Assembly: GCA_938743325.2 (NCBI GenBank)
Contig: OW568879.1
Span: 124,001 to 188,000, forward strand
Direction: 5' to 3'
Length of the DNA stretch: 64,000 bases
Source: Pycnococcus provasolii
Lineage: Eukaryota; Chlorophyta; Pseudoscourfieldiophyceae; Pseudoscourfieldiales; Pycnococcaceae
Shown: one piece after another, positions 835 through 60,215 of the stretch
Position numbering within the stretch: position 1 is the first letter of the stretch
How the letters are laid out: each line of letters begins with the position of its first letter
Position numbers and translations under genes: made by a program
The notes under the pieces: model-generated
Told to the model about the DNA's origin: nothing
The model's input: the letters and a program-made list of their open reading frames with translations, nothing else
The model's database searches: none

Positions 835-1438
835 GATAACGAACAGTCAGGTACTCAACAAAAAAACAAAAACGACACACAGAGACAGACAAGAAAGGGT
901 GATGTGATGGGGCCCCGTGCAGCCGTGAGTGGTGAACGAAACCCAGCGTGTGCACTGTTGGGAAGGGAGGGAGGGAGGGAGGGCAGTGGGAGTGGGGCTT
1001 TGGCTCCAGGGGCTTGTCGCCTGTCGTCGTCCCGGGCTTGGCCCAGGCCTTTGGCCCCTCTGCTTTTTCCTCCTCTCTTTTTTGAGTGGGGTTCTCCGAC
1101 TCCCACTCTTTTCCCATCTTTTCTTTTCTCTTTCCCGCCGCCGTGTTATTACCCTAAAGGTCGCCGCCTCCATCCCTCCCTCCCTCCCTCCCTCCCTCGT
1201 GGGGGTTCCACCTCTGACCTCGAGGTCGAGGGGGGGGGGGGGGGGGGAGACTCTTGTTGGGACGGGAGGGTTCTTCTGGTTAGGGTATTCAGAATTGGGT
1301 TAGGGTTACCCTTAGGTTAGGGGGAATCGGCGGCGGCTCTCCTGTTGTCACCAGGTTCCGCCATCAACATCAAAGGCAACTGAAATTATCGTAGTGTTCT
1401 TGGCAATACTTTGTCACCTGTCTTTGGCGAATCGCCTT
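835..1438. other. Divergent intergenic spacer with purine/pyrimidine tracts
   Basis: This 604-bp spacer separates two divergent genes (kinase to the left, PPR-methyltransferase to the right). It holds (GGGA)n and (CCCT)n runs near 960-985 and 1173-1200, a G homopolymer around 1230-1248 and telomere-like repeats at 1279-1324. Reading frames across it are low-complexity and are not believable genes. It probably contains both promoters. Confidence 0.6.
1279..1324 (+). repeat. Degenerate TTAGGG telomere-like tract
   Basis: Several TTAGGG units occur, with some degenerate (TTAGGGTA, TTAGGGTTACCC). The tract ends about 115 bp before the ATG at 1439, with the G-rich strand on the coding strand of that gene. 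Confidence 0.75.
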
Positions 1439-3649
1439 ATGGCAATGTCGTCGTCGTCGTCGTCGTCGCAGTTGTGCGCGCAGCTACGTACGTGCGCCCG
1501 CCACAAAAACCTCAAACAAGCGCAAGACCTATTCACAGCTTATCTTCATGGGAGCATTTCCTTGCCGTCGCCATCAGCATCAGCATCAGCATCAGCATCG
1601 GCAACAAACACACAACTGTGCCAAGCTTACGCGGCGATGATTAACGTCTTCGCGTCGTGTGGAAGGCTCGACGACGCGCGCGCACTATCCACGGAGATGT
1701 GGCGCAAACTACTAGGAAGACCCCTCGACGTCATGGCGGATGGTGACAGTGACGCCCCAGGCACGACGAGAAAGATGCTGCCTCAGACGTACCACTTTGC
1801 GTTCATCGTCACGTGCACGTCTTTGTTGAAAGCACTGGGCACGTCCTCTTCACCCGGTGCGCACGAATTCGCAAGAAACATCCTGTTGTGCGCTCACCGA
1901 AACGCCGTGACGCTTGACGCAAGAATCGTTAGCGCGTTCCTGCGCGCGTCGCTGTGGGCGAACGAGTCTAGGCTCAAGTACACCGTCAAAGCGCTGCAGC
2001 ACACACACACAGACCTCGCAGGACGGCGCCTGCTAGGTGCCATGCTCATGCGCGCAAGCAGAGTCGGGGAGCTGCGCGCGCTGTGCACTCTCGCGCGCAC
2101 GGAACTGCAGGAGGAAAGAGACTACAGAAGCACGGTGCGAGGAGGTGTCGAGGCGGCTCTGCAGGCAACTGGCGGCAAGTACGCGAATATTGCCAAGTTG
2201 GTCACGCACGCGCCGAGCGGGCGCAGCTCGCAAGAGTGCCTCTTCTACGCAAGAGGGTACTGCGAAAGAGGCATTGGGTGCACCTTCGTGCACGACGCCA
2301 GCGCCGGGAGGAGGCAGCGCGACCGAAAGGCGGTACTGCTTGAGCAGGCATACACCACGTGGGAGCTGCACGTGAAACTCGCCCTCACGCTGACACTTCT
2401 CGGCAGACGTGGACCCGCGATGCGCGCGCTCGAAACGTGCGACAGCATCGCCGCATCGGTGTCAGCATCCACATCCGAGCATCATGGCGCGCACGGCAAC
2501 GAGCAGCATCATTACGACGAAGGCGATGCGGGTGACGGCGAGGAAGGATCCGCAAGCTTTAGCAGCGCGGCGTTTCGCAGAACGAAGCACGAGGAGCTGC
2601 TACTCGAAATGAAGCGCGTGCGCCGAGCATGGGAGTCAAAAGTGAAGCCAAAGTTGAGTCGTCTTGGCGCGTACGTCGATGCCGCGAAAAGAACGTTCTT
2701 TTTCGATCAACGCGTGTCGAAGCAAAAGCGAAGTGTTGCCGCCGCCGCGATGTCACGTGCATGGCGTCGTGGCTTCGGGATTTCCGCGGTGGCACGGCGA
2801 GGCTTCGCGCATGCGCTGGGCGGCGACAACAAAGATGGCGACAAGAGCACATCTGCGGCGACAGCCGCACTGCGCGAGGAATATCGCCGGAGACTCACTC
2901 GAGATGGACGAATCGACTGGACAAAGGTGTTCGGTCCATCAAGCGATGTGCACTTGGAGATTGCGTGTGGCAGTGGCGAATGGGCGGCAGCGCAAGCGCG
3001 TGCTCACGATGCGAGATCTTCGCAGGCGTGCTGGGTATGCATGGAGCTGCGTCCAGACCGTGTACATCGTTGCTTCGCGCATGCGGCGCTGGAGCGGCTC
3101 AGCAATCTCGCTGTCCTTGCGGGAGATGCGCGTGACGTGCTCGCATCTCGCGTGCCACACCACAGCGTGCATCGCATCTTCGTGCGCTTTCCTGAGCCAC
3201 CGCACAGACGCGATCACGACGCCGCGAGCAACGACGCGGCTTTGCTTACGGACGAATTCTGGAGGGCTTGCTGGAAGGCTCTTCGAAAGAACGATGGCGT
3301 GCTCGTCGTTTATGGCGACAACCACCCATATCTAGAGACGCTCGCGAATGATCTTGAGAAGCAGGAGCATTCCAACACAAGCAAGCGTGCGCGCATCTCA
3401 CGGCGCATGTGGCACGATGCAGTTGACGGGAGCAATCTTTCTCTTGCCGTTGCTGTGCGCGAAGGTACGCCCGGCGAAGACCTTGGCGAGATGGCTGTGC
3501 CACAAGATGAAGACGCGATGTCGCTGTTTGATCGATTTTGGAACAACGGCGCACACAGTGGTCGTTGGCACGTTGCTGTCACGCCGGCCCACGCTGAGGA
3601 AGAGCAAGGGGAGGAGTGCTCCGAACCAAAGAGGAGAAAGGCGCGTTAA
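1439..3649 (+). CDS. PPR - CCCH zinc finger - TrmB-type tRNA (guanine-N7) methyltransferase fusion
   Basis: The product has 736 residues from ATG 1439; the frame also extends upstream to a GTG, which I do not use. Residues about 10-70 look like PPR-type helical repeats (a two-helix motif around MINVFASCGRLDDARAL). A CCCH zinc finger lies at about 267-288 with spacing C-x7-C-x5-C-x3-H (CLFYARGYCERGIGCTFVHD). The C-terminal third is a class I SAM-dependent methyltransferase of the TrmB/METTL1 family: a SAM loop near residue 505 (HLEIACGSGEW), the family's aromatic-Pro active-site segment near 580 (FVRFPEPPHR) and the trailing block LLTDEFWRACWKALR. TrmB enzymes make m7G46 in tRNA. PPR joined to tRNA guanine methyltransferase (PPR-TGM) has been described in microalgae, and such proteins are usually organellar, so an organelle RNA target is an inference. 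The family Asp of the FPDPW-like motif is Glu here, so activity is not certain. Fold assignment is strong. Confidence 0.85.
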   Translation: MAMSSSSSSSQLCAQLRTCARHKNLKQAQDLFTAYLHGSISLPSPSASASASASATNTQLCQAYAAMINVFASCGRLDDARALSTEMWRKLLGRPLDVMADGDSDAPGTTRKMLPQTYHFAFIVTCTSLLKALGTSSSPGAHEFARNILLCAHRNAVTLDARIVSAFLRASLWANESRLKYTVKALQHTHTDLAGRRLLGAMLMRASRVGELRALCTLARTELQEERDYRSTVRGGVEAALQATGGKYANIAKLVTHAPSGRSSQECLFYARGYCERGIGCTFVHDASAGRRQRDRKAVLLEQAYTTWELHVKLALTLTLLGRRGPAMRALETCDSIAASVSASTSEHHGAHGNEQHHYDEGDAGDGEEGSASFSSAAFRRTKHEELLLEMKRVRRAWESKVKPKLSRLGAYVDAAKRTFFFDQRVSKQKRSVAAAAMSRAWRRGFGISAVARRGFAHALGGDNKDGDKSTSAATAALREEYRRRLTRDGRIDWTKVFGPSSDVHLEIACGSGEWAAAQARAHDARSSQACWVCMELRPDRVHRCFAHAALERLSNLAVLAGDARDVLASRVPHHSVHRIFVRFPEPPHRRDHDAASNDAALLTDEFWRACWKALRKNDGVLVVYGDNHPYLETLANDLEKQEHSNTSKRARISRRMWHDAVDGSNLSLAVAVREGTPGEDLGEMAVPQDEDAMSLFDRFWNNGAHSGRWHVAVTPAHAEEEQGEECSEPKRRKAR

Positions 3650-4237: not shown

Positions 4238-7200
4238 TCAGCTCTCCGCCTCCGCCTCCGCTTCCGCCTCACCTTGGCCACCTTCTGGAGCCGTCTCAAG
4301 CTTCAGCTCGTCGACAGCCTGCGCCGCCTCATCCGACGCCTCGCGTAAGAGCTTGACGACGTGAGCTGCGACGACATTTGCCGATCTCACCTCGCGCATT
4401 ACAGACCCATGCGACTGTGCTTCCTTCATTCTCTTTCGATGGAGGAATCCACGGACAGCCGCCTGCAGGCGCATGATGGCAAAGTAGTGGTTGATGCAGA
4501 ACATTTCATCTTCAGCTTCTAAGGCATCTTTGTCGCCCTCTCCGGCAGTTTCAGGCTTTGCCGGAGGAGGTGACAACGTGGGTACCCTCAGTCTCGCAAA
4601 GTCAGCCTGCGTGTATTGGCTCGTTCGGTCGGTGATGAGAGCGCGCTGCTGCGCGAGCCGTCTTATGCGAAGCTGCTTTTGCACCTTCTCCCGCACCTGC
4701 TTGGGCAGGCTGTTGATGTCCACCTTGAGGTGCCGGCAAATCATCGCCTGCAAAGCTTCCTGGTAGTACAGCACGTGCTGCCTTGCAGGTACGGACAGTG
4801 CTCGCTGAAACTCGAAAATCTCAGCACGCGACACGCTCAAGTTACCAAGCCCCAGAGGAGGAGGCACTTTTTTGATCAGCTTTGGCATGTCCGTTAGCTG
4901 CACAAAACCGGAACCATCCGGGTCGAGCTGCAGCCACGACATCTTGAAGCTGGTAAGGTCCTCGTCGGTCACTTGCAGCTCTTCGTCATCCTTTGTCGCA
5001 CTGAAGTTCTCAAGCACGACGGCGATGAGCAAGTTTAGCGTCAGGAAACTTCCCAGAATCACGTACGACGCAAAGTACAGCGGTGCGCCATTGTTTCCGC
5101 AGCAGTTCCACTCGCCCGTCTCCGGGTCTCGGCCACAGTCGGCGTCGCTATTGCAATCATCGGTGATCATGCATGAATACATGATGCTGTTCCACGCCTC
5201 GCCCGTTGCCATACGCAGGAGTACAAGCAGCGAGCGGCCAAATGTGCGAAAGTTGACGTGATCGTTCAGCTCTCCATTTTCCTTGATTTTGCCGAACAAG
5301 TTCATGCCGAGCACCGCATAAACAAAGCACAGCAGCAGCAGCAGCGCGCCGATGTTCCCCAGTGTCGGCAGCGAGGTGACGAGCGTTCCGAATAAAACGC
5401 GGAGTCCCTTCAGGCGCTTCACAAGGCGGAAGACGCGAGCAAGCCGGAACACCCTGAGAAAGTTGGCAGATCCCGCACCGGAGATGAAGCCAAAGATGGA
5501 ACCACAGACGACAATGAAGTCGAAGCGATTCCAGTTTTCAGAGAAGTACGCGCCGCCGTACGCGCCAATCTTTATTACCGCTTCGGCGATGAAGATGCTA
5601 GAAAAGAAAATGTCAATCACCAATAGACCAGTTGTGAACGAATCAGACATACCGCGGTGCTCCATCGCCATGCATATGGTACTCAAGACGATGGCCATCA
5701 AAATCGCAAACTCGAACTCGCTTCGACTAGCGATGTCGTATGCAAGCATGCGAAGGGGATTCGTTGGCGGCGCGGGTGGTGGCACGGTGTTCACACGGAG
5801 CAATTTGCGATGCGCGGAAACCCAGACCTTCTGCTCCTTCGTGAGAAAGATACCGCCGCTCTCGCCACTTTCGTTCTGCTCACGAGACAAAGCCGAGAAG
5901 TTGTCCAAGATGATGCCAATGAACAGATTGATGATGAAGAATGAGCCGATGATCATGAAGCCAAGGAAGAAGAGGGCCATCGCCTCGTTGTAATTTCGCC
6001 TCGGCGCCTTACCAATATCCACCGCGTCCACGCCATCGTACATCACCGCAGTCCACCCTTCGGTGGTGCTCATCTCGAAAAGCGTAAGCATTGCCTTTCC
6101 TATGTTGTCGAAATTCATGTCGGCATTCTTCCATTGATGGCCAGCCGCCTCACACTCCGGTTGGTCGAGTTCGATCGCCGGGTTGTCTTCGGTGCCGTCG
6201 TCACAACGGTGGTATTTTCCCATGAATAGCTGCATGGCAAGAATTCCAAATATGAGCCAGAAGAGGAGACTGACGAAGAGCACATTGCCCAATCCAGGTA
6301 CAGAACGGAGGAGAGCATTGACGACCAGCTTCAGTTCGGGTACTCGACTGATCACGCGGAGCGGACGTAGAACACGAATGGTTCGCACCGCGCGAACCCA
6401 TCCAAGGTTCAGGCTTTCGAGTGGCATCGATACGATGCTGAGAACGACAATGAAGCCGTCGAGAAAATTCCAAGGGTCCGCGCAGTAACTTCCCGGATGC
6501 CGCGCGATGCCGATGGCTGCCAGCTTGATGATCATCTCAAGAGCAAATATGGTGGTGAAGACAGCGTCGATGGCCTCGAGTGCTTTCACCGTGCTTTCGT
6601 TCTCCATCGTCCTAGGACTTTCGGTTGCCATGATGATCGACGATACTACGATCATCATCATGACCACATACTCAAATCGCTTGTCATCGGCTAGGCGGAA
6701 GCAGAACATGCGAACCGGATTGTTGCGCTCGAGGAACCCAAACGTCTTGGGGCAACGATCTTCCAGTCGCATCTCGCCCAGTGCACCTTCCATAGGGCCG
6801 ATCTCCGGTTTTGCCTTATCCTCGTCGCCAGCTGGAGGAGTAGGCTGCACGGTGCCGTCAGATTCGAAGAGAGGATTGTCGCTGAGCGGCAAACCGTTCG
6901 CCGTATCCCCATTTCCCCCATTTTCCCTGGCATCCACCGCAGCCTTGGCACGTTCCATTGCCTTCGTTTCCCTCCGCTGGATCCGCTCCGTCTGCTGCGC
7001 ATATTCAACCTTCGCCGCGTCAATCCCCTCGCGGTCGTCGAATACAGCAAGGAACAGAAGTTCCCAACGATGTAGGCCTGGACGTGTGTACTTCATGTCC
7101 GCCCATTCTTGCCACATATCCTCCGTGGTGCCGGTCGTGTCGCGCCCGAACATGTTCAGATGCGCAAACTGCGGAGCATACTTGTTCATTTCAGCTTCCT

Positions 7201-9466
7201 CCTCTTCGTCTAACTCATCGTCACTGTCAAGATCGTCGTCATCTTTATCGCCCGTTCCAAACTCTGAAAGCAAAATCGCGACGAAGAGGTTGACGACGAC
7301 GAAGTTTCCAATCAGCAGCAGAAGGATGAAGTAGATCACGCTGACATCGCTCGTACCTGCAACTCCATCGTACATGACTGCATTCCAATCCTCACCCGTG
7401 AGTATCTGAAATACCGTGACAAGCGCCCAAAGAAACGAGTCAAAGTTGTGCCGTGGCAAATCGTCGCCTGTGCCCATCTTCCCACCAAACATCTGCATCC
7501 CAAGAAGGGAGAAGACGAATATGACAAGGAAAACGATGAAGGTGAAGTTTCCTAGCTCTGCCACGGCGCGCCACATCGTGGCTAGGAATTTTCGTAGAGA
7601 TACCCACGAGCGCACGAGCTTCATCACGCGAAGTATGCGGAATGCACGAAGTGCGCCCAGGCTTCCGCTTCCGCTTGCAAGTAGCTCGACGATGGATATG
7701 ATCACGACAACGACGTCGAAGCAGTTGAATCGATCTTTGATGTACTCGTTGATTCCTAGGCCTAGGATCTTAAGGGCCGCCTCGAGCGCAAACAGGATCG
7801 TCAACACTAGGTTCATGTTGTCAAGCACCGTGCGAAATGTCTTGCTCATGCCGTGGTACTCCATGCTAAGAAATAAGGTGTTGAGAATGATGGCAGCCAC
7901 AATGACCCTCTCGAATGCGGGTTGGTCAATCACCTGCTTGCAGAGCGCGCCAATGTCGAATGGCTTGGGCTGGCCGTCGTCGAGAATGTCCACTTCAGGC
8001 ACCGTAAGAGCCGTGTGATTCTTTCGCTTGCGACCGGCCTGCTCACCCTTGCTACCGTCCGCGTTTGGTGTGGTCGGATTCCCCTTCGCATCGGGCGACC
8101 CTCCCCTCGCCGCGGCGATCGCAGCAGCCTTGGCGGCAGCTTTCTTCTCCTCTTCCATCTGATTCTCAAGCTCGAGCCGTTCTTCCTCCTCCTTTGCTCT
8201 CGCGGCGCTTTCGTCCTCCGTCGCCTGCTCGCCGTCGTACGTGTCCGTGATGACCGCAAGTGCAAGGTTGAGCACGAAGAAACCGCCGAGGAACACGAGC
8301 AGCACGAAGTACAGAAATGCCCATCCGCTCGTGGCATCCATGGCCCAGTACATGATCGGCGTCCACCCCTCGAGCGTGATGCACTGGAAAATGGTCAGGC
8401 ACGACCAGAGAAAGTTGTCGAAGCTGGTGATGCCCATGTTCGGGTTGCCGGGCACGTTGCGGTCCGGGTTCCGCCAGTCGAGGCAGATCTGGCCCTCGCC
8501 GCAGTGGCGCCCTGACCAGTGGTACGACTCGTTCGTGCAGATGCGCGTGTCGTCGCCAATGTCCAAAACCTTCGGCTCGCTCGCCCATGCGGTGGAGTTG
8601 GGAACGTACTCAATCTCGTGGCACCGCTTGGACAGCGTTCCCATGAACAGCTGCATGCCCAGGATGCCGAACACGAAAAACAGAAAGAGGCAGACGAGAG
8701 CGACGTTCGCCATCATCGGCACGACGCCGATCATCGTTCTCACGAGCACGCGCATGCCCGGAACCGCGGATACGGTTCGCAGCGGCCGCAGCACTCGTAT
8801 GGTGCGGATGGCGGACGCGCCGGGTATGGCGTCGGAGCCAAAGCTGATGACGGACGCGACGACGACGATAAAGTCCAGTATGTTCCACCCGTCTTTGAGG
8901 TACGTGCCGTCGCCGAGTACGAACCCCATCGCCACAACCTTGATGGCGAACTCGACGAGGAAGAAGGCTGTGAAGACGGGCTCGCTGTCGCTGACAATCT
9001 TGTTGCGACCTTCGTTGTCGCCCTTGAGCGGGTCGGTGAGCGCCAGTATCAGGCAGTTGATGCCGATGAGAGCAACCACGACGTTCTCGAACACCTGGCT
9101 GTCGTTGATTTTAGTGCACATCGCGCGCAGCGGGTTGTCGACACCGAGCAAGCCAAAGCTCTTTCCGGTGTACTTCGGTGGATCTACATATTCGAACAGG
9201 GCGTCCGCCTTTGCCTGTTCCTCCTTCGTGAAGTTGCGAAACTCCACGCTGTGCGTGTGTATGGCGAACTCAGCTTCGGCACTAGGCTCTGGGCTTGCCC
9301 CACTTCCCTGATCGCGTGCCATGGACGCGACGTGCGCCGCCAAGCCACGCTGTGCGACTTCCACGTCTACAGTCAGCGGCCCCTTGAGAGATGGCTTTTG
9401 CCCGAACGACGTGTTTGATGCGTTCGATGCGCCCGTTTGTTCTTCTGCGTTCCCTTGCGCCGACAT
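4238..9466 (-). CDS. Four-domain voltage-gated Ca2+ channel alpha-1 subunit (Cav-like)
   Basis: The product has 1742 residues from the ATG at 9466; the open frame starts 32 codons earlier at a GTG. There are four homologous six-TM repeats (about 120-405, 515-740, 925-1170 and 1245-1490). Each S4 carries spaced Arg/Lys (for example AIRTIRVLRPLRTVSAVP in repeat I and FLRVFRLARVFRLVKRLKG in repeat IV). The four pore loops read TLEGW, TGEDW, TTEGW and TGEAW, giving an EEEE selectivity ring, the signature of Ca2+ selectivity (animal Nav channels have DEKA). The C-terminus has an EF-hand-like segment with DPDGSG near 1515 and an IQ motif near 1665 (RLQAAVRGFLHRKRM), so calmodulin feedback is expected, as in animal Cav1/2. 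Land plants lack these channels, but chlorophytes such as Chlamydomonas keep them for flagellar and membrane Ca2+ signalling. It lies head-to-head with the ligand-gated channel at 10990. No frame break occurs across 5.2 kb. Confidence 0.96.
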   Translation of the reverse strand: MSAQGNAEEQTGASNASNTSFGQKPSLKGPLTVDVEVAQRGLAAHVASMARDQGSGASPEPSAEAEFAIHTHSVEFRNFTKEEQAKADALFEYVDPPKYTGKSFGLLGVDNPLRAMCTKINDSQVFENVVVALIGINCLILALTDPLKGDNEGRNKIVSDSEPVFTAFFLVEFAIKVVAMGFVLGDGTYLKDGWNILDFIVVVASVISFGSDAIPGASAIRTIRVLRPLRTVSAVPGMRVLVRTMIGVVPMMANVALVCLFLFFVFGILGMQLFMGTLSKRCHEIEYVPNSTAWASEPKVLDIGDDTRICTNESYHWSGRHCGEGQICLDWRNPDRNVPGNPNMGITSFDNFLWSCLTIFQCITLEGWTPIMYWAMDATSGWAFLYFVLLVFLGGFFVLNLALAVITDTYDGEQATEDESAARAKEEEERLELENQMEEEKKAAAKAAAIAAARGGSPDAKGNPTTPNADGSKGEQAGRKRKNHTALTVPEVDILDDGQPKPFDIGALCKQVIDQPAFERVIVAAIILNTLFLSMEYHGMSKTFRTVLDNMNLVLTILFALEAALKILGLGINEYIKDRFNCFDVVVVIISIVELLASGSGSLGALRAFRILRVMKLVRSWVSLRKFLATMWRAVAELGNFTFIVFLVIFVFSLLGMQMFGGKMGTGDDLPRHNFDSFLWALVTVFQILTGEDWNAVMYDGVAGTSDVSVIYFILLLLIGNFVVVNLFVAILLSEFGTGDKDDDDLDSDDELDEEEEAEMNKYAPQFAHLNMFGRDTTGTTEDMWQEWADMKYTRPGLHRWELLFLAVFDDREGIDAAKVEYAQQTERIQRRETKAMERAKAAVDARENGGNGDTANGLPLSDNPLFESDGTVQPTPPAGDEDKAKPEIGPMEGALGEMRLEDRCPKTFGFLERNNPVRMFCFRLADDKRFEYVVMMMIVVSSIIMATESPRTMENESTVKALEAIDAVFTTIFALEMIIKLAAIGIARHPGSYCADPWNFLDGFIVVLSIVSMPLESLNLGWVRAVRTIRVLRPLRVISRVPELKLVVNALLRSVPGLGNVLFVSLLFWLIFGILAMQLFMGKYHRCDDGTEDNPAIELDQPECEAAGHQWKNADMNFDNIGKAMLTLFEMSTTEGWTAVMYDGVDAVDIGKAPRRNYNEAMALFFLGFMIIGSFFIINLFIGIILDNFSALSREQNESGESGGIFLTKEQKVWVSAHRKLLRVNTVPPPAPPTNPLRMLAYDIASRSEFEFAILMAIVLSTICMAMEHRGMSDSFTTGLLVIDIFFSSIFIAEAVIKIGAYGGAYFSENWNRFDFIVVCGSIFGFISGAGSANFLRVFRLARVFRLVKRLKGLRVLFGTLVTSLPTLGNIGALLLLLCFVYAVLGMNLFGKIKENGELNDHVNFRTFGRSLLVLLRMATGEAWNSIMYSCMITDDCNSDADCGRDPETGEWNCCGNNGAPLYFASYVILGSFLTLNLLIAVVLENFSATKDDEELQVTDEDLTSFKMSWLQLDPDGSGFVQLTDMPKLIKKVPPPLGLGNLSVSRAEIFEFQRALSVPARQHVLYYQEALQAMICRHLKVDINSLPKQVREKVQKQLRIRRLAQQRALITDRTSQYTQADFARLRVPTLSPPPAKPETAGEGDKDALEAEDEMFCINHYFAIMRLQAAVRGFLHRKRMKEAQSHGSVMREVRSANVVAAHVVKLLREASDEAAQAVDELKLETAPEGGQGEAEAEAEAES

Positions 9467-10989
9467 GTATGCGGTGCTGTGCTGTGCTGTGCGAGCTGTA
9501 CAGTAGTTGTGAGCACCTTCCACCCTGCCTCCTGCCTGCTCGTCAGGCCACCTGGCTGCCACCCCAGCGCTGGTTGGAACTCTCCAGCAGCAGCAGCAGC
9601 GGCGGCGTCGGCGTCAACTCGGTCTTAAGAGTCCTTTTGTTGTGCACACGGCGAGAGCTTAACAAGTGGCTGGCCGGCTAATCAGTTGTCAGGAAATCAA
9701 GCGGACAAAGATTAAGCCAAGGCAATGGCTGACAAAGGACTCACGAGGCTCACTCACGAGGCTCACTCACTTGCTTACTCTACTATTGTACTATACTACC
9801 AAGCGCCACCGCACACGCCTCCGTGAGAAGAGGAACAAGCGACCTGTTCACTCACCAACAACGCCCGGCGCCGAGGCCACCACCTAGCTAGGTGTGTGTG
9901 CGTGTCGTGTGTGGGTGGGACCGACCCCCTTGCGGGACCTCTCCGAACCCCCCCGGCAGCCCGGCAGCCCGGGGGGGGGAACGCCAGCCGACAAGAACAG
10001 GTTGAACAGGGGAACCCGGCCGACAACAACAGGTTATAATTACAGGGGAGAACAGGGAGGCTGGGCGTGGGAGAGAGCGGCGTGAGAGACAATTCACAAT
10101 TGTCTTTTCTTTTCTCGACGAGAGAAAGGGGAGTGATGAGGTTGCGACGCTTGGCTTGGCTCTACTTGGCTGTGCTTGGCTCTGTGCTTTGCATGTTGGT
10201 TGGTGGGGGAAACATCGGACTTACGATAGTCTAGCTAGACGGCGCAAAACCCTTTCCTGGCCTTGTTCGTCGCGGCACGGCACGCAGTACAGCACGTGAG
10301 CACGGCTATGTAAGAACTATGTATCAGGGCTATGACACCTTTACAGTATGTTTTTGACAGTTTTTTTAGACACCTTGCAGGAGCACTTCTCGACGTGAAA
10401 GTTTGGGTCGTTGAAAGGGTTTTCTCGTGTGTTTTCGCGCGAATATTCCTGCACGTGATACTGTATTTCACACTCATGACAGCACAGCGCATAACCTTAG
10501 TAGTACAGTATGTAGGCCTGCAAACGCACAAACATCCATGGCTTAGGCGTCGATCTCCTTCGGTGCCATGTACATAGGTGCCTCCTTGATGAGACGCCAA
10601 GAGATGAGACGCCCCCGTTTTTGCCCAGGTAACCTTAGTAAACCCTCCGTAGGAGTGGGGACCCATCCCTGGTCTTATCCCTACAGACGCTTCCGTGCTA
10701 ATTCCTTCCTCGAGCCTCGAGGTGATGTGATGTCACACTACCGGGTACGTGGTACCTGCTCCTATCCTATACCTACTGTACCCTTACTCACTAAAGGGAT
10801 GGGATTGGGAGTGCGCTTCGAAGGCACAATGCCTCCCACCACTACCCTAAAGAAGGTAGGGTAGGCCGCGGGATCGTAGTCTATGCTCATAGGCGATCCG
10901 ATCCAAGCTTCTTCGACGAAACCCCACCGGACCACACTGGACAACCGGAGGGATCCCCTGACCCTTAAGTTACCTACATACGGCTAATA
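9467..10989. other. 1.5-kb divergent spacer between two ion-channel genes
   Basis: This spacer is shared by the Ca2+ channel (leftward) and the pentameric channel (rightward). It contains a CAG-type microsatellite near 9586-9600, C/G homopolymers near 9960-9980, and TAGTCTA-type octamers near 10228 and 10877. Small frames such as 10235-10666 (-) and 10332-10577 (+) have no domain logic and are not called. It presumably holds the two promoters and the 5' UTRs. Confidence 0.55.
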
Positions 10990-13900
10990 ATGTTGACGAG
11001 TTTCCCCTCTCATAGTCTATCCAACGAACCGGGCTGCGGCCGGGCGCTTAAGGCCTCACATCACAAATCTCCTCCTCCTCTTGCGATGATGGTGGCGGCG
11101 TCTCATCAGTCCTCCTCATTGTCGTCATCCTCGTCGTCAGGGTTAGGTTCCTCGTCGTCGCTTCGTCGTCGTCGTCGTGGCCTTCGTGGTTACAGCTCGT
11201 GTTCGCGGGCAGCGTCCTTTTCTGATCTCCTCCTCCTTCTCGTTTGCCTATCCCAGTTTGGCCTTAACTTGCATCACGGCTTTTTTTCCACACGATCGTC
11301 GTGCGGTTCACAAACGACGACAAGGTTGTGGGGCGCGCACGCGCAGGACACCACAGCTGGTGGCTATTCTCCAGCAGGACCGTCGTTTCAGAAGCCGCCG
11401 GTTGGGCCGTACATCGCGCCAGAGGCCGCCGCGCCGTTCGACGAGCCGCGAGAACAGAACCCAAGGCGACTCCGGGAACTGCGCCTGCAGATGGACTTGC
11501 ACCGAAGGTACAGCGACTACTGGACGGACGGGTGGCTGCACAGCGTCGCGAAGCAGACGCTGCCGCTCTCCGTCACAGAGACGTCGCGCAAAACGGTCAA
11601 GGTGGGCATGTTCTTCTACAGCCTCAAGAATGTGGACGAAGTGCAAGGAACCATCGACATCAGCTTCTGGCTGAGAATGAGCTGGTACGACCCCAACCTG
11701 TGGTACAACGTCACAGAACACGGTGGCGTAACGCAGAGCGTCGTCGACCCGAAGCTCGTCTGGACGCCTGACATCCTTTTGTACAATTCCGTCGACGACT
11801 ACATGGGATCAAACCTCAAGGAGACGAAACCGTGGGTGTACCAGAGCAACGACACGAGCGCGCCACTCGTCTACTGGAGCAGGCCTGGCACCGCGCAGGT
11901 GCGTTGTCGCTCCGAGGACGTCATCACAACGAGCAAGGAACAGCAGCAGCGTATGACGGAGGATGCCGTTCTTCAAACCGCCCGTGGAGAGTATCCTCCA
12001 CGAGAAACCCCTCTCAAGAGCCGCCCGCAAGACCCTGAAATCGCCAAGAAGATCGGCAAGCACTGGCCAGCTTCGATGGACCTCAGCCTCTTTCCGTTCG
12101 ACACGCAGTTCTGCGAGGTTGTGTGGGGCGGCTGGACGGACAGCGGCCTGCGCGTCGACTTTGAGCTGCTCGACCCGGCGGTGGAGCCGAGCCCTGATCA
12201 GGGCGGCGACGTCGGCTCGCCGTCGCCGGAGTTCTCGGTGGGGCCCATCTACGCGGAGAAGATTGAAAAGTTCTACAACTGCTGCCCCGACGAGCCGTGG
12301 CCGCTCGTGCACTTCTACCTGTCCATCAAGCGGCACACCGTGGACTACGTGCAAAACATCATCATCCCCGTCATCTTTCTGACGTACATCGGCTTCCTGT
12401 CCTTCATCATTCCCACTTCAAGCGGCGAGCGAGTCAGCCTCGGCGTAACATGTCTGCTGACGATCCTCGCCGTCATGTACATCACGACGAATGACACGCC
12501 GCGCACGAATCGAATCACCGCGCTGAGTATCTTCTACAACGGGTCGCTCGCCTTTGTCATCTTGCCCGTGTGTGTGAGCTGTGCGGCTGCGTATTTCGTG
12601 GATAAGCAGACGGGTGTGGATAAAGTGGATGACATGATTCAAGAAACTCTCGACCTGCTGAACTTTGCATCGGCTGACGAATTTGCGGGTATTTCAAGGA
12701 GGCACCGTTCGCGAAGGAGCATCAGAAATGACGACGAAGGGGAGAGCGGCGGCCTCTTCGGAAACCTCAAGAAGATGATTAATTCACCGAGGAATATTGA
12801 GGGTGATGGTGACGGTACAGGTACATCGCCGCGTGAGAAAGACATGCGCAACTCGACTTCTTTTAGGCGCAGACGAGGTTTCGTGCAGCGCATGCCATGC
12901 CTTCGCGCGTACCGGCTACGCCATCTCTTCGTGTGGAAAATCAAGAATGACCTGAAGGATGTACTCAACAGCATTGACAGTCGCATTGGCGATAAGCTGA
13001 TTACTAATACGGGGAACACGAAAGATCTTGGAGATCACCTGAACGTGAACGTGTGGCCCACGCCATTTGAGTTGACCCAAATTATCGATGCGTCGTTTCT
13101 CTTCAGTCTGTCAATTGGATACACTGCGTTCCTTATCATTCTCGAGCAAGTTGTGGTGGGCAGCATACCCGCGAAACATTTAGTTGAAAGCGTGTTAATC
13201 TTTATACTCGTGTTCGTAGCCTTTGCGGGCATCAGCCTGGGAGCGTCATTTTTGTATCACATTGAAGTGAAGCTTGAGGAAGAGCGTTTGTACAGCCGCG
13301 ATGGTCTACCCGGTGAGCTCGACGAGCGGCAGATCAAGGCATATCGCACGCTCTTCCGGGCATTTGACCGCGATCGCAACGGCGATGTGACTGCCGCTGA
13401 GCTGATTGCCGTGTACGGCGATCAAGGTCGCATGATCGACGAGAGTGTTCTCCGCGAGCGCCTTGGTCGAATTGACGCGAACAAGGACGAGACGATCTCC
13501 TTTGCCGAATTTGTGGTGATATTGGAACGCGAGAGGACTTGCGCACGCATGCGCTCCGAACTGAAGGGACTGGAGCAGGTGAGTGCGCATTCGTACAATC
13601 GCTCACACTCACAGAAACATCAGGGTGCCGACACGGCTGTTCACCATTGGACGGCCCATCAGGTGTCCCAGTGGCTGAACAGCGAGGGTTTTTCGAACAT
13701 CGCCTTGCACTTCGTGCGCCATGGTGTCACGGGACAGATTTTGCTTTCGCTGACAACTGATGAGCTTAAGAATGACCTTGGCGTGACAAAGCTTGCGGAC
13801 CGCCGCAACCTCATGAAGAAGATTGGGAAATTGCACGAAATTTCGGCGACGCAGCGCTTCCGTCGCGTTGTTGACGCCATGAACCTAACCCGACTGAACA

Positions 13901-14064
13901 AAAAGTTTAGAAATGAGGATGAGGAATCCAATATCACAGAGGAGGATTTGATTGAAAAAATCGGACGGAATAACGACGACGAAGCTGGTTCTCCCTCCTC
14001 AAGTGGCGGTGAAGCTGATCTAAGTCTACCGTTGACGAAGATGACCACCCATGAAGTCGCATAA
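10990..14064 (+). CDS. Pentameric ligand-gated ion channel (nicotinic-receptor-like) with C-terminal EF-hands and SAM domain
   Basis: The product has 1024 residues from ATG 10990; an internal ATG at 11086 is an alternative start just before the Ser-rich leader and hydrophobic signal segment (LLLLLVCLSQFGLNL). The ligand-binding domain (about 165-450) shows the loop A motif WTPDILLYN near 258, FPFDTQFC near 368 and a loop C with adjacent cysteines (YNCC, near 428), as in ACh-binding alpha subunits. TM1-TM3 lie at about 455-538. TM2 is preceded by SGER, matching the GE of cation-selective receptors rather than the PAR of anion channels. Two further hydrophobic segments (about 697-722 and 732-756) follow a 150-residue loop. 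Then come two EF-hands (DRDRNGDVTAAE and DANKDETISFAE, 777-850) and a SAM domain (884-950). The first Cys of the Cys-loop disulfide is absent. The pLGIC fold is certain; ligand and gating are unknown. Confidence 0.93.
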   Translation: MLTSFPSHSLSNEPGCGRALKASHHKSPPPLAMMVAASHQSSSLSSSSSSGLGSSSSLRRRRRGLRGYSSCSRAASFSDLLLLLVCLSQFGLNLHHGFFSTRSSCGSQTTTRLWGAHAQDTTAGGYSPAGPSFQKPPVGPYIAPEAAAPFDEPREQNPRRLRELRLQMDLHRRYSDYWTDGWLHSVAKQTLPLSVTETSRKTVKVGMFFYSLKNVDEVQGTIDISFWLRMSWYDPNLWYNVTEHGGVTQSVVDPKLVWTPDILLYNSVDDYMGSNLKETKPWVYQSNDTSAPLVYWSRPGTAQVRCRSEDVITTSKEQQQRMTEDAVLQTARGEYPPRETPLKSRPQDPEIAKKIGKHWPASMDLSLFPFDTQFCEVVWGGWTDSGLRVDFELLDPAVEPSPDQGGDVGSPSPEFSVGPIYAEKIEKFYNCCPDEPWPLVHFYLSIKRHTVDYVQNIIIPVIFLTYIGFLSFIIPTSSGERVSLGVTCLLTILAVMYITTNDTPRTNRITALSIFYNGSLAFVILPVCVSCAAAYFVDKQTGVDKVDDMIQETLDLLNFASADEFAGISRRHRSRRSIRNDDEGESGGLFGNLKKMINSPRNIEGDGDGTGTSPREKDMRNSTSFRRRRGFVQRMPCLRAYRLRHLFVWKIKNDLKDVLNSIDSRIGDKLITNTGNTKDLGDHLNVNVWPTPFELTQIIDASFLFSLSIGYTAFLIILEQVVVGSIPAKHLVESVLIFILVFVAFAGISLGASFLYHIEVKLEEERLYSRDGLPGELDERQIKAYRTLFRAFDRDRNGDVTAAELIAVYGDQGRMIDESVLRERLGRIDANKDETISFAEFVVILERERTCARMRSELKGLEQVSAHSYNRSHSQKHQGADTAVHHWTAHQVSQWLNSEGFSNIALHFVRHGVTGQILLSLTTDELKNDLGVTKLADRRNLMKKIGKLHEISATQRFRRVVDAMNLTRLNKKFRNEDEESNITEEDLIEKIGRNNDDEAGSPSSSGGEADLSLPLTKMTTHEVA

Positions 14065-20112: not shown

Positions 20113-21132
20113 TTACACGTCGACGTTTAGTCCGAATGGTCCAAGGACGCCGGCGGGAGGCGCCTGGCCTTCGTGGTTGCTTCCCCAGCACGCGATGCTG
20201 CCGTCGCGTCGAAGCGCCAGCGAGTGAAAGTGGCCCGCGGCGATGGCGACGAAGTCGCCGTCGACGCCGCCGGGAGGTGCCTGGCCGTCGGCGTTGAGTC
20301 CCCAGCACGCGATCCTGCCGTCGCGTCGTAGCGCTAGCGAGTGATAGTCCCCCGCAGCGATCGCGACGAAGTCGCCGTCGACGCCGGCGGGAGGCGCCTG
20401 ACCGTTGTTGTTGCGTCCCCAGCACACGATCCTGCCGTCACGTCGCAGCGCGAGCGAGTGTTGGTAAGCCGCAGCGATTGCGACGAAGTCGCCGTCGACG
20501 CCGTCGGGAGGCGCCTGGCCTTCGCCGTTGTATCCCCAGCATGCGACGCTGCCATCGCGCCGAAGCGCGAGCGAGTGAATAGTACCTGCGGCGACCATGA
20601 CAAAGTCACCTTGTATGCCGTCCGGAGGCGCCTGGCCGTTGGTGTTGCGTCCCAAGCACACGATGCTGCCGTCGCGTCGCAGCGCCACCGAGTGAGCGGC
20701 ACCCGCGGCGATGGCGACGAAGTCACCGTCGACGCCGTCGGGAGGCGCCTGACCGTTGTTGTTGCGTCCCCAGCACGCAATCCTTCCGTCGCGTCGAACC
20801 GCGAGCGAGTGAAGGAAACCCGCGGCGAGTGCGACGAATTCGCCGTCGACGCCGCCGGGAGGCGCCTGGCCTTCGCCGTTCTCTCCCCAGCACGCGATGC
20901 CGCCGTCGCGTCGAACCGCAAGCGAGTGCCAGAAACCCACGGCAATCACTCTCGACGAAAATCGCGCAATGCGAAAACGCTCTTGCTCCCTCGCAATGCG
21001 TCTTTCGCGCTGCCACGGTATGAAGGCGAGGCGGAGGGCTTCGTACGCCAACGCTCCGAGCTCCATAGGGGCGTGTGCAGACATGGCGTTGAGAGGAATG
21101 ACTCGATGTTGTTGTTGTTGTGTACGTCTCAT
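20113..21132 (-). CDS. RCC1-like seven-repeat protein, copy A
   Basis: The product has 339 residues. A conserved N-terminal helix-like block (LGALAYEALRLAFIPWQRER) is followed by seven tandem ~39-residue repeats with the pattern DFVAIAAG--HSLALRRDGRIACWG-N--GQAPP-GVDG, then a short tail ending PFGLNVDV. Seven repeats with HSLAL...WG.N..GQ suggest an RCC1-type seven-bladed propeller, although each blade is shorter than in classical RCC1 (50-60 residues). Some RCC1 proteins are guanine-nucleotide exchange factors for Ran, but this assignment says nothing about the partner. The repeats are very alike at DNA level, which suggests recent tandem expansion. The gene has a close paralog at 25652-26716 in the same orientation, and the two flank the kinase gene. 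Confidence 0.88.
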   Translation of the reverse strand: MRRTQQQQHRVIPLNAMSAHAPMELGALAYEALRLAFIPWQRERRIAREQERFRIARFSSRVIAVGFWHSLAVRRDGGIACWGENGEGQAPPGGVDGEFVALAAGFLHSLAVRRDGRIACWGRNNNGQAPPDGVDGDFVAIAAGAAHSVALRRDGSIVCLGRNTNGQAPPDGIQGDFVMVAAGTIHSLALRRDGSVACWGYNGEGQAPPDGVDGDFVAIAAAYQHSLALRRDGRIVCWGRNNNGQAPPAGVDGDFVAIAAGDYHSLALRRDGRIACWGLNADGQAPPGGVDGDFVAIAAGHFHSLALRRDGSIACWGSNHEGQAPPAGVLGPFGLNVDV

Positions 21133-21600
21133 CAGTCAAATTCTTGAGGTCAATTCTCGGAATATCTTCTCGGAATCCTAAGGGTAAGGTGTAACGTTCG
21201 GGGATGGGGTTCAGAGACCCCCGTTAAAACCCCAACTACTTCATAGCCGGCGGGGGAACGAAGAAAAAGTCGTTGAGCCTCACCGACCCGACCTTTTTAT
21301 CGGTTTCGCGCCCTGGTCAGATTCGAATTCAGTGTTTGTGGACAACGCCTTGGGTGGTAAACTTGATTTTAGAAACGTCCCTTCACCTTCCCCTTTGCTT
21401 TGTGTTTTCTTTGTGTTTCTTTGCGTCGGCCTGCTGCTTCGCCTGCTTCGTCACTCTTCCGTGTGTGTGTGTGGGAGTGAGTGAGGTCGCCTGCTTCGTG
21501 CTCCTGCGGTGTGGTGTGTAGCTGCGTGTGTGTGTGTACATTAGCTGTGCTGTGCTGTGATAATATAGGCAATCCTCAAGCACGCTCATTCATACTAATA
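21133..21600. other. Divergent spacer between RCC1 copy A and kinase
   Basis: This 468-bp spacer has GT-rich stretches and no convincing gene. The first ~60 bp downstream of the RCC1 start match the flank of copy B, so the duplicated unit extends past the coding region. Confidence 0.55.
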
Positions 21601-25651: not shown

Positions 25652-26716
25652 TTACACGTCGACGTTTAGTCCGAATGGTCCAAGGACGACGGTGGGAGGC
25701 GCTTGGTCGTTGTTGTTGAGTCCCCACTCCGGGTCGTTGATGTTGAGTCCCCAGCAAGCGATGCTGCCGTCGCGTCGAAGCGCGAGTGAGTGAGTCGGAC
25801 CCGCGTCGATCGCGACTAAGTCGCCGTTGATGCCGTCGGGAGGCGCCTGGCCGTGGATGTTGTTGCCCCAACACGCGACCCTGCCGTCGCGTCGTAGCGC
25901 TAGCGAGTGATAATCACCCGCAGCGATCGCGACGAAGTCGCCGTCGACGCCGGCGGGAGGCGCCTGGCCGGAGCGGTTCTGTCCCCAGCACGCGACCCTG
26001 CCGTCGCGTCGCAACGCCAGCGAGTGATTGCCACCCGCAGCGATCGCGACGAAGTCGCCGTCGACGCCGGCGGGAGGTGCTTGGTCGTAGTGGTTGTCTC
26101 CCCAGCACGCGATCCTTCCGTCGCGTCGAACCGCGATCGAGTGCGAGTAACCCGCGGCGAGTGCGAAGAAGTCACCCTCGACGCCGTCGGGAGGCGCCTG
26201 GCCACGATGGTTGCCACGATTGTCCGTGTTGCTTCCCCAACACGCGACCCTGCCGTCGCGTCGCAACGCCAGCGAGTGATTAGTACCTGCGGCGACCGCG
26301 ACGAAGTCGCCGTCGACGCCGTTGGGAGGCGCCTGGTCGGCGCCGTTGTCTCCCCAGCACGCGACATTCCCGTCGCGTCGAAGCGCGAGCGAGTGCGAGT
26401 AACCCGCGGCGATTGCGACGAAGTCACCGTCGACGCCGCCGGGAGGCGCCTGGCCTTCGTCGTTGCTTCCCCAGCACGCGACCCTGCCGTCGCGTCGCAA
26501 CGCCAGCGAATGATAAAGACCTCCGGCAATCTCTCCGCCTGAGAGCCGCGCTAAGCGAATACGTTCTTGCTCCTTCGCAATGCGTCTTTCGCGCTGCCAC
26601 GGTACGAAGACCAGGCGGATCGCTTCGTACGCCAACGCTCCGAGCTCCACAGGGGCGTGTGCTGACATGGCGTTGAGAGGTGACTCGATGTTGTTGTTGT
26701 GTTGTGTACGTCTCAT
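25652..26716 (-). CDS. RCC1-like seven-repeat protein, copy B
   Basis: The product has 354 residues with the same plan as copy A at 20113-21132: the LGALAYEA block, seven repeats of HSLALRRDGRVACWG-type blades, and the tail PFGLNVDV. Two blades carry insertions (a DNRGNHR-type insert in blade 3 and a DPEWGLNN-type insert in blade 7), so the protein is slightly longer. Flanks on both sides also match copy A, which points to a segmental duplication of the whole gene with its ends, now separated by the kinase gene. No frame break is seen, so both copies look expressed or recently so. The function is unknown beyond the RCC1-like fold. Confidence 0.88.
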   Translation of the reverse strand: MRRTQHNNNIESPLNAMSAHAPVELGALAYEAIRLVFVPWQRERRIAKEQERIRLARLSGGEIAGGLYHSLALRRDGRVACWGSNDEGQAPPGGVDGDFVAIAAGYSHSLALRRDGNVACWGDNGADQAPPNGVDGDFVAVAAGTNHSLALRRDGRVACWGSNTDNRGNHRGQAPPDGVEGDFFALAAGYSHSIAVRRDGRIACWGDNHYDQAPPAGVDGDFVAIAAGGNHSLALRRDGRVACWGQNRSGQAPPAGVDGDFVAIAAGDYHSLALRRDGRVACWGNNIHGQAPPDGINGDLVAIDAGPTHSLALRRDGSIACWGLNINDPEWGLNNNDQAPPTVVLGPFGLNVDV

Positions 26717-26923
26717 CAGTCAAATTCTTTGAGGCCAATTCTCCGAATATCTTCTCGGTAACTTTATCCTTGGACTTTCTTGGAATACTTCGGGGTTCTG
26801 CTGTCGGACGCCTCCCACATTTTTCCTCCCCGCAGAAAACTCCTCTGATGAACCTGCCAAGGTTAAAAACAGCTTCACCTGTCCCGCCCGTACATCTACA
26901 TCTCAACACATTTCGGGCAGCAA
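26717..26923. other. Divergent spacer before the fasciclin gene
   Basis: This 207-bp spacer lies between the RCC1 copy B start and the fasciclin gene start. Its first part is homologous to the 5' flank of RCC1 copy A. No gene is seen. Confidence 0.5.
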
Positions 26924-29537: not shown

Positions 29538-29774
29538 TAGAAAGCTTTGAAGGAAGGAGGAGAGTTGCAACATTTGATAATATGAGAAAGGAATTGAAAA
29601 AGTTGCAAATCAAATGTGACTGAGAAGGCATTTAATCAACAAAAAAGAAAAAAGAAAAGATACACCAGCAAAAAGACGACGACCACCAACCGCCAACTGC
29701 CGTCCATAAAATTCATGGTAGCCCTCCAACCCTCCAGCCCCCCTTTTTCCCCAAGGGGTGAAAGTCCGTTTAAG

Positions 29775-32177: not shown

Positions 32178-32489
32178 GGCGAGGAAACAAACGGAGAGCT
32201 GCTCGAATCAAACTAAAAACTAAAAACTTTTTAGATAGTTATGGGGAAAGCAGGCCGTTTCTTTGTTGTGTTGCTTTGGGATATTTTTCTTTCGGTTTCC
32301 CTTTTTCCCCCCCCCTTAAGTTAAACTTTAACGTTACCCGCCCGCCAGCTCAGCAGCACACACCTGTCAGCCTGTGTGGATTCGGCAATCGGCAGGAAGA
32401 AATAGGGTTTCCGCATTTCCCTTTCACCTACCCGGTAGGGGATATGTGTGAGCTGGGGTTTTACACCTACTGTACCACTCGTCACTCCT

Positions 32490-46931: not shown

Positions 46932-47692
46932 CAATATGCCTCCCCCCGGGACCCGTTACTTAAGGTACTTAAAGGCCACACACAACAAGCTATATCTACC
47001 AACTATATAGTACAACTAATAAGGGCATGAGCTGCCGGACATCACGGCGCCATCAAAGTGATGATGGTGGAGAAGTGATCCGATCCGATCCACAAAGCTC
47101 AAGTTTAGTCTATCATACGGGGGATCCTCTGGGCGGGGAATCCCACTTATTTGGTATTTGGGAAGAACTATGTAAACTACCCGGTAAAATACACCCCACC
47201 TGATGCCTGAGGGGAAGTAGAGCACTTGCAAGGCTGATATGGCGCCCACCTATGGCGCCCAGACTGCCAGAGTTTTTAGACTTTGGTCGAGGAAATACAG
47301 GAAACTTACCACCCCCAGGCTGCCAGGGGGCATGTCACGGCTGTCACGCGTGCGCAGTACAGTACAGTAGCTCAGCACTACGGGTTACAGTAGCTAACTT
47401 ACCTGTACTGTACAGTACTGTACTGTACTACTTAACCTTACCTATGTAGACACGCTGGGCACGACGACGACACATGTCGGCAACTTTAGTCTATGAAATG
47501 GATCGCACACGCTGTCTTGGATTTTCCAATCACTGCTCCCGTTTCTTTCCCAACCAGCGTTAGGGGTAGGTAGGTTGGGTTAGATGGAGTTGACTTGTTC
47601 CCCTTCTTCAGCTACAAAAACAAAATTATTATTATTATCACAGTATTCGTTATTATCATTCTTATATTATCACATCATACAGTAAGGTCACG
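46932..47692. other. Spacer upstream of GT29, palindromic TACTG repeats
   Basis: This 761-bp spacer lies between the GT29 start and the stop of the giant gene. It has TAGTCTAT octamers near 47106 and 47485, GTACAGTAC runs at 47355-47371 and 47402-47431, and an ATT microsatellite near 47625-47655. I see no gene. Confidence 0.6.
47402..47431. repeat. TACTG/CAGTA palindromic repeat
   Basis: The tract contains the self-complementary block GTACTGTACAGTAC and further TACTG units. Confidence 0.75.
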
Positions 47693-51936: not shown

Positions 51937-51974
<38 letters not shown>

Positions 51975-60085: not shown

Positions 60086-60215
60086 AGAGGTCCCTTACCA
60101 ACGACCTGTACAGTAGCTAGGTAGGTACGGTACGGTACGGTGTAGCGCTAGAGACAGATACAGGTGCGGGCCAGTGCCGTACTTAGTCTAAGATACCTGT
60201 TCGCGCACAACACGT

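What the first reader, a model, noticed from the sequence alone, without database searches (positions are those of the whole stretch)
10990..14064. Nicotinic-type channel fused to EF-hands and a SAM domain, with an odd TM count
Seen: a pLGIC with loop A WTPDILLYN, vicinal Cys YNCC in loop C, cation-type SGER before TM2, but no first Cys of the Cys-loop; then five rather than four TM candidates, two EF-hands and a SAM domain. Known: canonical pLGICs have four TMs and an extracellular C-terminus. A fifth TM would place the EF-hands and SAM in the cytosol, where Ca2+ could gate or scaffold the channel. I know of no described receptor with this layout in plants or algae.
Basis: partly seen in the sequence, partly recalled or inferred. 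Interest (0 to 1): 0.88.

Follow-up and report, generated by a model that had tools for sequence, protein, structure and literature searches.

The report
Nicotinic-like algal channel with EF-SAM tail
A gene, probably from a green alga, encodes a relative of the animal nicotinic receptor that appears to carry an extra membrane helix and, behind it, a built-in calcium sensor and a protein-clustering domain.

Summary
Window 10990-14064 (+) is one open 1024-aa frame with Neur_chan_LBD (6e-28), Neur_chan_memb (2e-12), two EF-hands and a SAM domain (2.5e-14). Its closest solved relative is the alpha7 nicotinic receptor (1.9e-32). Four of five aromatic-box residues are identical to alpha7 and the fifth is Tyr to Trp; the loop C Cys pair and cation-type GER are present; the first Cys-loop Cys is Ala361. 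A small tree puts it beside nAChR + 5-HT3, on a long branch. There are five core hydrophobic segments. Segment 701-723 aligns with bacterial M4; 734-754, the most hydrophobic on two of three scales, is extra. In 32 aligned prokaryotic relatives the chain ends 24-41 residues after the M4 motif, here after about 326. I favour five membrane helices and a cytosolic EF-SAM tail: an onium-gated cation channel with its own Ca2+ sensor and clustering module. Topology, Ca2+ feedback and ligand are inferred; no orthologue or transcript could be examined. Green-algal pLGICs are known, so this is a new variant of a known kind.

The parts
10990..14064 (+). whole gene, single frame, 1024 aa (Met33/34 are alternative starts)
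11209..11265 (+). N-terminal hydrophobic segment 74-92 after an Arg-rich stretch: signal peptide or signal anchor
   Evidence: hydropathy; function inferred
11578..12339 (+). extracellular ligand-binding domain (about residues 197-450)
   Evidence: Neur_chan_LBD 6.3e-28; strands in the model; nAChR fold by Foldseek
11668..11670 (+). Trp227, aligned with alpha7 Trp55 (loop D)
11761..11787 (+). loop A WTPDILLYN, Tyr265 aligned with alpha7 Tyr93
11797..11955 (+). low-confidence insert in the extracellular domain (about 270-322), facing gaps in alpha7 and in the bacterial rows
   Evidence: limits approximate
12070..12114 (+). Cys-loop position: Ala361 in place of the first Cys, FPFD motif, Cys375 second Cys
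12133..12135 (+). Trp382, aligned with alpha7 Trp149 (loop B)
12274..12300 (+). loop C: Tyr429, Cys431-Cys432, Trp437 (Tyr195 in alpha7)
12358..12414 (+). TM1 (457-475), Pro460
12421..12489 (+). SGER and TM2 (482-500): Glu-1', Arg0', Ser2', Thr6', Leu9'
12544..12600 (+). TM3 (519-537)
12622..13059 (+). intracellular loop, about 545-690; helices predicted next to TM3 and before TM4, mostly at low confidence
13090..13158 (+). TM4 (701-723), aligned with bacterial M4
13189..13251 (+). extra TM5 (734-754); predicted helix runs 728-769
13366..13401 (+). EF-hand loop 1 (793-804)
13474..13509 (+). EF-hand loop 2 (829-840)
13639..13833 (+). SAM domain (884-948)

Best explanation
It is a cation-type pentameric ligand-gated channel subunit of the nicotinic/5-HT3 branch, most likely forming a pentamer in a membrane of the secretory pathway, probably the plasma membrane. 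A small quaternary-ammonium or similar onium ligand (choline, betaine, acetylcholine or DMSP-like) binds the aromatic box between subunits and opens the M2 pore to cations, probably including Ca2+. The usual four helices are followed by a fifth that turns the C-terminus into the cytosol. There, on each of five subunits, an EF-hand pair senses Ca2+ entering through the pore or through voltage-gated channels, and feeds back on gating through the TM5 helix. The SAM domain clusters channels or tethers them to partners. SHOWN by sequence comparison: domains, pore and binding-site residues, alignment of TM4 with M4, the extra hydrophobic segment. INFERRED: pentamer, ligand class, Ca2+ permeability, cytosolic tail, Ca2+ feedback, clustering.
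For: Domain hits. Alpha7 is the best PDB match by sequence and by fold (Foldseek 2e-20). Box residues W227, Y265, W382, Y429 are identical to alpha7 W55, Y93, W149, Y188; Y195 is W437; Cys431-432 kept; GER, S2', T6', L9'. The nematode channels DEG-3 (2.2e-19) and ACR-23 (4.4e-18, named betaine receptor) are also among the matches, and DEG-3/DES-2 is reported betaine-gated (PMC8747062, title and start of abstract in a search listing). M4 of 32 prokaryotic relatives aligns with segment 701-723; 25 of the 32 have the Asp that matches Asp700 (my count). TM5 scores KD 2.57 and GES 2.41, highest in the protein on these two scales; six presumed soluble window proteins (2488 aa) reach at most 1.61 and 1.74. 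Two separate helices 701-723 and 728-768, pLDDT 72-79 over 705-744, without any alignment, and again with one. The EF loops carry the standard ligand positions, and calmodulins are the best solved matches of that region. Paired EF-hands and SAM are usually cytosolic modules, and in seawater EF-hands would be saturated all the time (general knowledge).
Against: No orthologue or transcript was seen, so conservation of TM5 and of the tail is untested. TM4 is weak (KD 1.78, GES 1.57; a presumed soluble protein reaches GES 1.74), though 8 of 32 bacterial M4 are no stronger by KD and 4 of 32 by GES. On the octanol scale TM5 (0.53) is second to TM1 (0.76) and one segment inside the ligand-binding domain reaches 0.30, so hydropathy is not decisive. 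Pfam does not recognise M4 even with the loop cut out, and the M4-TM5 piece alone gives only two weak unrelated matches below cut-off. The full model is poor (mean pLDDT 57.8; SAM region about 31-53). EF loop 2 has Glu at the usual Gly position. The N-terminus is Ser/Arg-rich and could be an organelle-targeting sequence. No functional data exist.
Confidence: 0.55

Rival explanations
1. Four-helix topology: one of the two last hydrophobic segments does not span the membrane, so the EF-SAM tail is extracellular or luminal, as the EF-SAM of STIM proteins is luminal (general knowledge).
For: Segment 701-723 is only moderately hydrophobic and below the best soluble-protein window by GES (1.57 against 1.74). 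The link between the two segments is short.
Against: Segment 701-723 aligns with M4 of 32 prokaryotic relatives and its hydropathy is within the M4 range; 734-754 is the strongest segment of the protein on KD and GES. STIM is not among the 43 SAM matches, and 43 residues separate EF loop 2 from SAM.
Confidence: 0.12
2. The tail is a scaffold only: SAM clusters the channel and the EF pair binds Ca2+ structurally, without gating feedback.
For: Nearest SAM relatives include liprin, SARM1/TIR-1, DGK-delta and Shank SAM domains, several of which assemble into oligomers (general knowledge). EF loop 2 is imperfect.
Against: EF loop 1 has the complete canonical pattern and the pair follows directly after the TM5 helix.
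Confidence: 0.3
3. The protein works in an internal membrane (ER, vacuole or plastid), so its ligand-binding side faces a lumen.
For: About 70 Ser/Arg-rich residues precede a hydrophobic segment, and AHAQ follows some 25 residues later, which also fits organelle targeting.
Against: Arg-rich flank then hydrophobic segment fits a long signal peptide or anchor as well; a start at Met33/34 shortens it. No localisation predictor was run.
Confidence: 0.2
4. The mature transcript lacks parts of the frame (for example the EF-SAM part or the extracellular insert).
For: Two donor-like places, 11896 and 13576; the second begins an in-frame 36-nt GT...AG stretch between EF and SAM (length counted by me).
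Against: The window holds several long intronless frames. Removing the 36 nt would keep EF and SAM joined in frame. Domains on both sides are intact.
Confidence: 0.06

Closest known systems
Animal nicotinic acetylcholine receptor, alpha7 subunit
   Same: Core fold, aromatic box (4 of 5 identical), loop C Cys pair, GEK/GER filter and M2 pattern
   Different: Ala361 breaks the Cys-loop; extracellular insert; fifth helix; EF-hands and SAM; falls outside nAChR + 5-HT3 in the tree
Protist and algal pLGICs of Jaiteh et al. 2016 (PMC4795631)
   Same: Same superfamily, unicellular eukaryotes including Chlorophyta; cation-type signature in some protists
   Different: That paper sorts loops into Cys-loop and Cys-less; here one Cys of two is kept. 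It discarded terminal regions, and its main text holds neither 'EF-hand' nor 'SAM domain'
Prokaryotic pLGICs (GLIC, ELIC and 35 fetched loci)
   Same: ECD + four helices, M4 region
   Different: The chain ends 24-41 residues after the M4 motif in 32 of 32 aligned rows; GLIC lacks the aromatic box and Cys pair at the aligned positions
STIM proteins (EF-SAM)
   Same: EF-hand pair followed by SAM
   Different: STIM is not a channel and its EF-SAM is luminal (general knowledge); it is not among the SAM matches
Polycystin-2 and plant TPC1 (channels with own EF-hands)
   Same: Channel with intrinsic EF-hands (PMC4244000, PMC9783492, title and start of abstract in a search listing)
   Different: Other channel families, not pLGICs (general knowledge)

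Membership tests
pLGIC / Pro-loop superfamily | [F/Y]PxD motif of the beta6-beta7 loop | tested here: met
   FPFD 368-371; motif from PMC4795631 Table 1
pLGIC / Pro-loop superfamily | pre-M1 Arg, M1 Pro, M2-M3 Pro | tested here: met
   R448, P460, P504
pLGIC / Pro-loop superfamily | profile match above curated cut-off | tested here: met
   PF02931 98.1 bits (cut-off 26) and PF02932 48.4 (28.1)
NCBIfam LIC (TIGR00860) | curated cut-off 280.2 bits | tested here: not met
   143.4 bits, E 8.9e-42
pLGIC / Pro-loop superfamily | four transmembrane helices, extracellular C-terminus | tested here: inconclusive
   five candidates by sequence and model speak against it, but topology itself was not measured
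pLGIC / Pro-loop superfamily | pentameric assembly | not testable with these tools
   only monomer models could be made
Cys-loop receptors in the strict sense | two Cys flanking the loop | tested here: not met
   Ala361, Cys375
nicotinic acetylcholine receptors | aromatic box and vicinal Cys of an alpha subunit | tested here: met
   4 of 5 identical, Tyr195 to Trp; Cys431-432
nicotinic acetylcholine receptors | falls within the nAChR clade | tested here: not met
   sister to nAChR + 5-HT3, 99/98, with the three animal rows together 99/94; long branch, only 5 animal rows
nicotinic acetylcholine receptors | opened by acetylcholine | not testable with these tools
   needs recording
cation-type pLGIC | GE(K/R) before M2 | tested here: met
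   G479 E480 R481; selectivity itself not measured
EF-hand Ca2+ binder | acidic/polar residues at loop positions 1, 3, 5 and Glu at 12 | tested here: met
   both loops; loop 2 has Glu at position 6; binding not measured
SAM domain | profile match above cut-off | tested here: met
   SAM_2 53.6 bits (cut-off 20.5); fold not confirmed by the model
STIM-type EF-SAM | sequence match to STIM | tested here: not met
   absent from all 43 SAM matches; the EF-region list shows only 60 of 451

The most novel reading that the evidence does not exclude
A five-helix pentameric ligand-gated channel whose cytosolic tail makes it a coincidence device: an extracellular onium signal opens it, ten EF-hand loops per pentamer read the resulting Ca2+ and change gating, and five SAM domains assemble channels into clusters. 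It would be a built-in counterpart of the separate calmodulin, kinases and scaffold proteins of animal synapses, in a single-celled alga.
Probability: 0.4. Interest if true: 0.82.

Novelty: new variant of a known kind. Interest (0 to 1): 0.62.

Why it matters
The architecture of pLGICs is regarded as fixed: extracellular domain, four helices, extracellular C-terminus (general knowledge). A member with a fifth helix and a cytosolic Ca2+-sensing, clustering tail would show that the fold tolerates C-terminal control modules, would be a natural template for engineered channels, and would help to test what these receptors do in unicellular organisms, where PMC4795631 states that no biological role is known for any of them (passage). 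A nearly intact nicotinic binding site outside animals also bears on how old onium sensing is.

Tried and rejected
No relatives by a eukaryote-type query: viral contigs with the protein, with A1 and with A2; prokaryote genomes with A2; plasmids by tblastn with residues 166-557. These collections are not made of algal genomes, so this says nothing about orthologues.

GC3 step: third-position GC is about 0.8 in the ECD to TM3 part and 0.47-0.66 behind it, which looked like a foreign core fused to a native tail. Rejected: the neighbouring Cav-like gene also has a high-GC3 stretch near its start (0.82-0.91 over codons 101-400, then 0.59-0.74).

STIM-like EF-SAM: rejected by sequence. Intron from 11899: thought unlikely, because the in-frame AG that I could see by eye would remove the stretch aligned with the hairpin before the Cys-loop of alpha7 and bacteria (two short low-confidence strands at 325-335). 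Pfam for M4 on a version without the loop: match over M1-M3 only; the M4-TM5 piece alone gave Oxidored_q3 (14.6 bits, cut-off 33.2) and NdhL (12.2, cut-off 25), set aside. The first count of bacterial M4 took M3 for M4 in many rows; it was redone on the alignment, with 32 of 35 loci. L009 and L020 were left out of alignment, model and tree because their match figures nearly equalled those of L007 and L018, L035 because its match was partial. VIA-align was not available. NCBIfam LGIC_1 (28.6 bits, cut-off 500), XopAW (22.5, cut-off 120) and IglG (16.9, cut-off 200) are far below cut-off and were set aside.

Full report
WHAT IS THERE. The frame 10990-14064 (+) is open for 1024 codons from Met to stop. 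Pfam finds Neur_chan_LBD, Neur_chan_memb, EF-hands and a SAM domain in that order, each with at least one model above its curated cut-off. I add an N-terminal hydrophobic segment (74-92), a low-confidence insert of about 45-50 residues in the extracellular domain, and a near-complete nicotinic binding site.

WHAT IT IS RELATED TO. 578 distinct PDB sequences match at E up to 0.01, of which 60 were shown. The best are alpha7 nicotinic receptors (1.9e-32), then muscle alpha, alpha6, alpha3, DEG-3, alpha4, the betaine receptor ACR-23 and 5-HT3A. Foldseek with the model gives alpha7 first (2e-20; 1106 matches at E up to 0.001, 50 shown). Identity to alpha7 over the aligned core is 30%. Against alpha7, W55, Y93, W149 and Y188 are identical, Y195 is Trp, both vicinal Cys are kept, and M2 agrees at E-1', S2', L3', G4', T6', L8' and L9'. 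The first Cys of the Cys-loop is Ala361; Cys375 is kept. PMC4795631 (abstract, passages and its section on conserved motifs seen) describes Cys-loop and Cys-less protist pLGICs; this one has one Cys of two, which suggests descent from a Cys-loop form (inference). The window row has a long branch (2.26) and the program warns that such joins may be false.

HELIX COUNT. On the KD and GES scales there are five core segments. To decide which of the last two is M4, I fetched 35 prokaryotic pLGIC loci, read their frames and aligned 32 of them with residues 159-965. Their M4 falls on QIIDASFLFSLSIGYTAFLII (697-717); 25 of 32 have an Asp at Asp700 (my count). From the position of Ile699 to the end they have 24-41 residues, the window protein 326 (whose printed 328 counts from residue 697). 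Segment 701-723 is weak (KD 1.78, GES 1.57), but 8 of 32 bacterial M4 are no stronger by KD and 4 of 32 by GES. Segment 734-754 is the strongest of the protein on KD (2.57) and GES (2.41), second to TM1 on the octanol scale, while six presumed soluble proteins of the window reach at most KD 1.61 and GES 1.74. AlphaFold without an alignment gives helices 701-723 and 728-768 (pLDDT 72-79 over 705-744; mean of the model 48.2). With the alignment it gives helices 692-722 and 728-769 (mean pLDDT 57.8, pTM 0.47). AlphaFold does not know the membrane, so topology remains inferred. Given M1-M4 in their usual orientation, a fifth crossing puts the tail in the cytosol.

TAIL. EF loop 1 fits the canonical pattern fully; loop 2 has Glu for Gly at position 6. 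The best solved matches of the EF-SAM region are calmodulins (2.5e-15; 60 of 451 shown). The SAM part alone is nearest to liprin-beta, TIR-1/SARM1, neurabin, DGK-delta, Caskin and Shank (43 matches at E up to 0.1, all shown, no STIM). The SAM fold was not reproduced with confidence.

MECHANISM. See Best explanation. The ligand guess rests on the aromatic box and on the betaine-gated nematode relatives among the matches. Ca2+ feedback and clustering rest on domain knowledge only. The neighbour 4238-9613 (-) is a four-domain voltage-gated-type channel (PF00520 in 4 stretches, 4.1e-254) with a Glu in each of the four pore segments as I read them, that is Cav-like. It lies head to head with this gene, which fits a shared Ca2+-signalling context but proves nothing.

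ORIGIN. No genome is held. The surrounding genes (phytochrome pieces, phytochelatin synthase, FBPase, GT29) fit an alga, probably green. This is inference; species not determined.

NOVELTY. Seven searches of the open-access library were made on this question. Rows seen of papers found: 25 of 337, 4 of 4, 15 of 249, 0 of 0, 15 of 353, 3 of 3, 5 of 6. No listed title or abstract start described a pLGIC with EF-hands, SAM or a fifth transmembrane helix; only PMC4795631 and PMC11085791 were opened, and those in part. Subscription papers, preprints and protein databases were not searchable here, so automatic annotations of such architectures may exist. Green-algal pLGICs as such are known. I class it as a new variant of a known kind.

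Noticed in passing
window 4238-9613 (-): Intronless four-domain voltage-gated-type cation channel (Ion_trans in 4 stretches; GPHH and IQ matches below cut-off), Glu in each of the four pore segments by eye, head to head with the pLGIC gene.
   Followed up: partly
window 4238-14064: Stretches near the 5' ends of both divergent channel genes have third-position GC of 0.75-0.91, falling to 0.58-0.74 further on.
   Followed up: partly
window 29600-32207 (-): Phytochrome: PAS_2 and GAF in one frame ending at a stop, PHY domain continuing in another frame: unrecognised introns, sequence errors or a pseudogene.
   Followed up: partly
window 20113-21135 (-) and 25652-26719 (-): Two genes sharing 117-nt repeats, on either side of a kinase gene; the first encodes RCC1-type repeats, the second was not scanned.
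   Followed up: no
window 47693-60094 (-): One open frame of 4133 codons with 12-nt and 132-nt tandem repeats; domains not examined.
   Followed up: no
window 13579-13614 (+): In-frame 36-nt stretch CAG|GTGAGTG...CACAG| between EF-hands and SAM that looks like a tiny intron.
   Followed up: partly
window 45426-46955 (-): Sialyltransferase-like GT29 gene (5e-6, 26.5 bits against a cut-off of 23), a family that I recall mainly from animals.
   Followed up: no
window 1316-3649 (+): Methyltransf_4 (TrmB-like) domain behind a long N-terminal part with weak CCCH-finger matches below cut-off.
   Followed up: no
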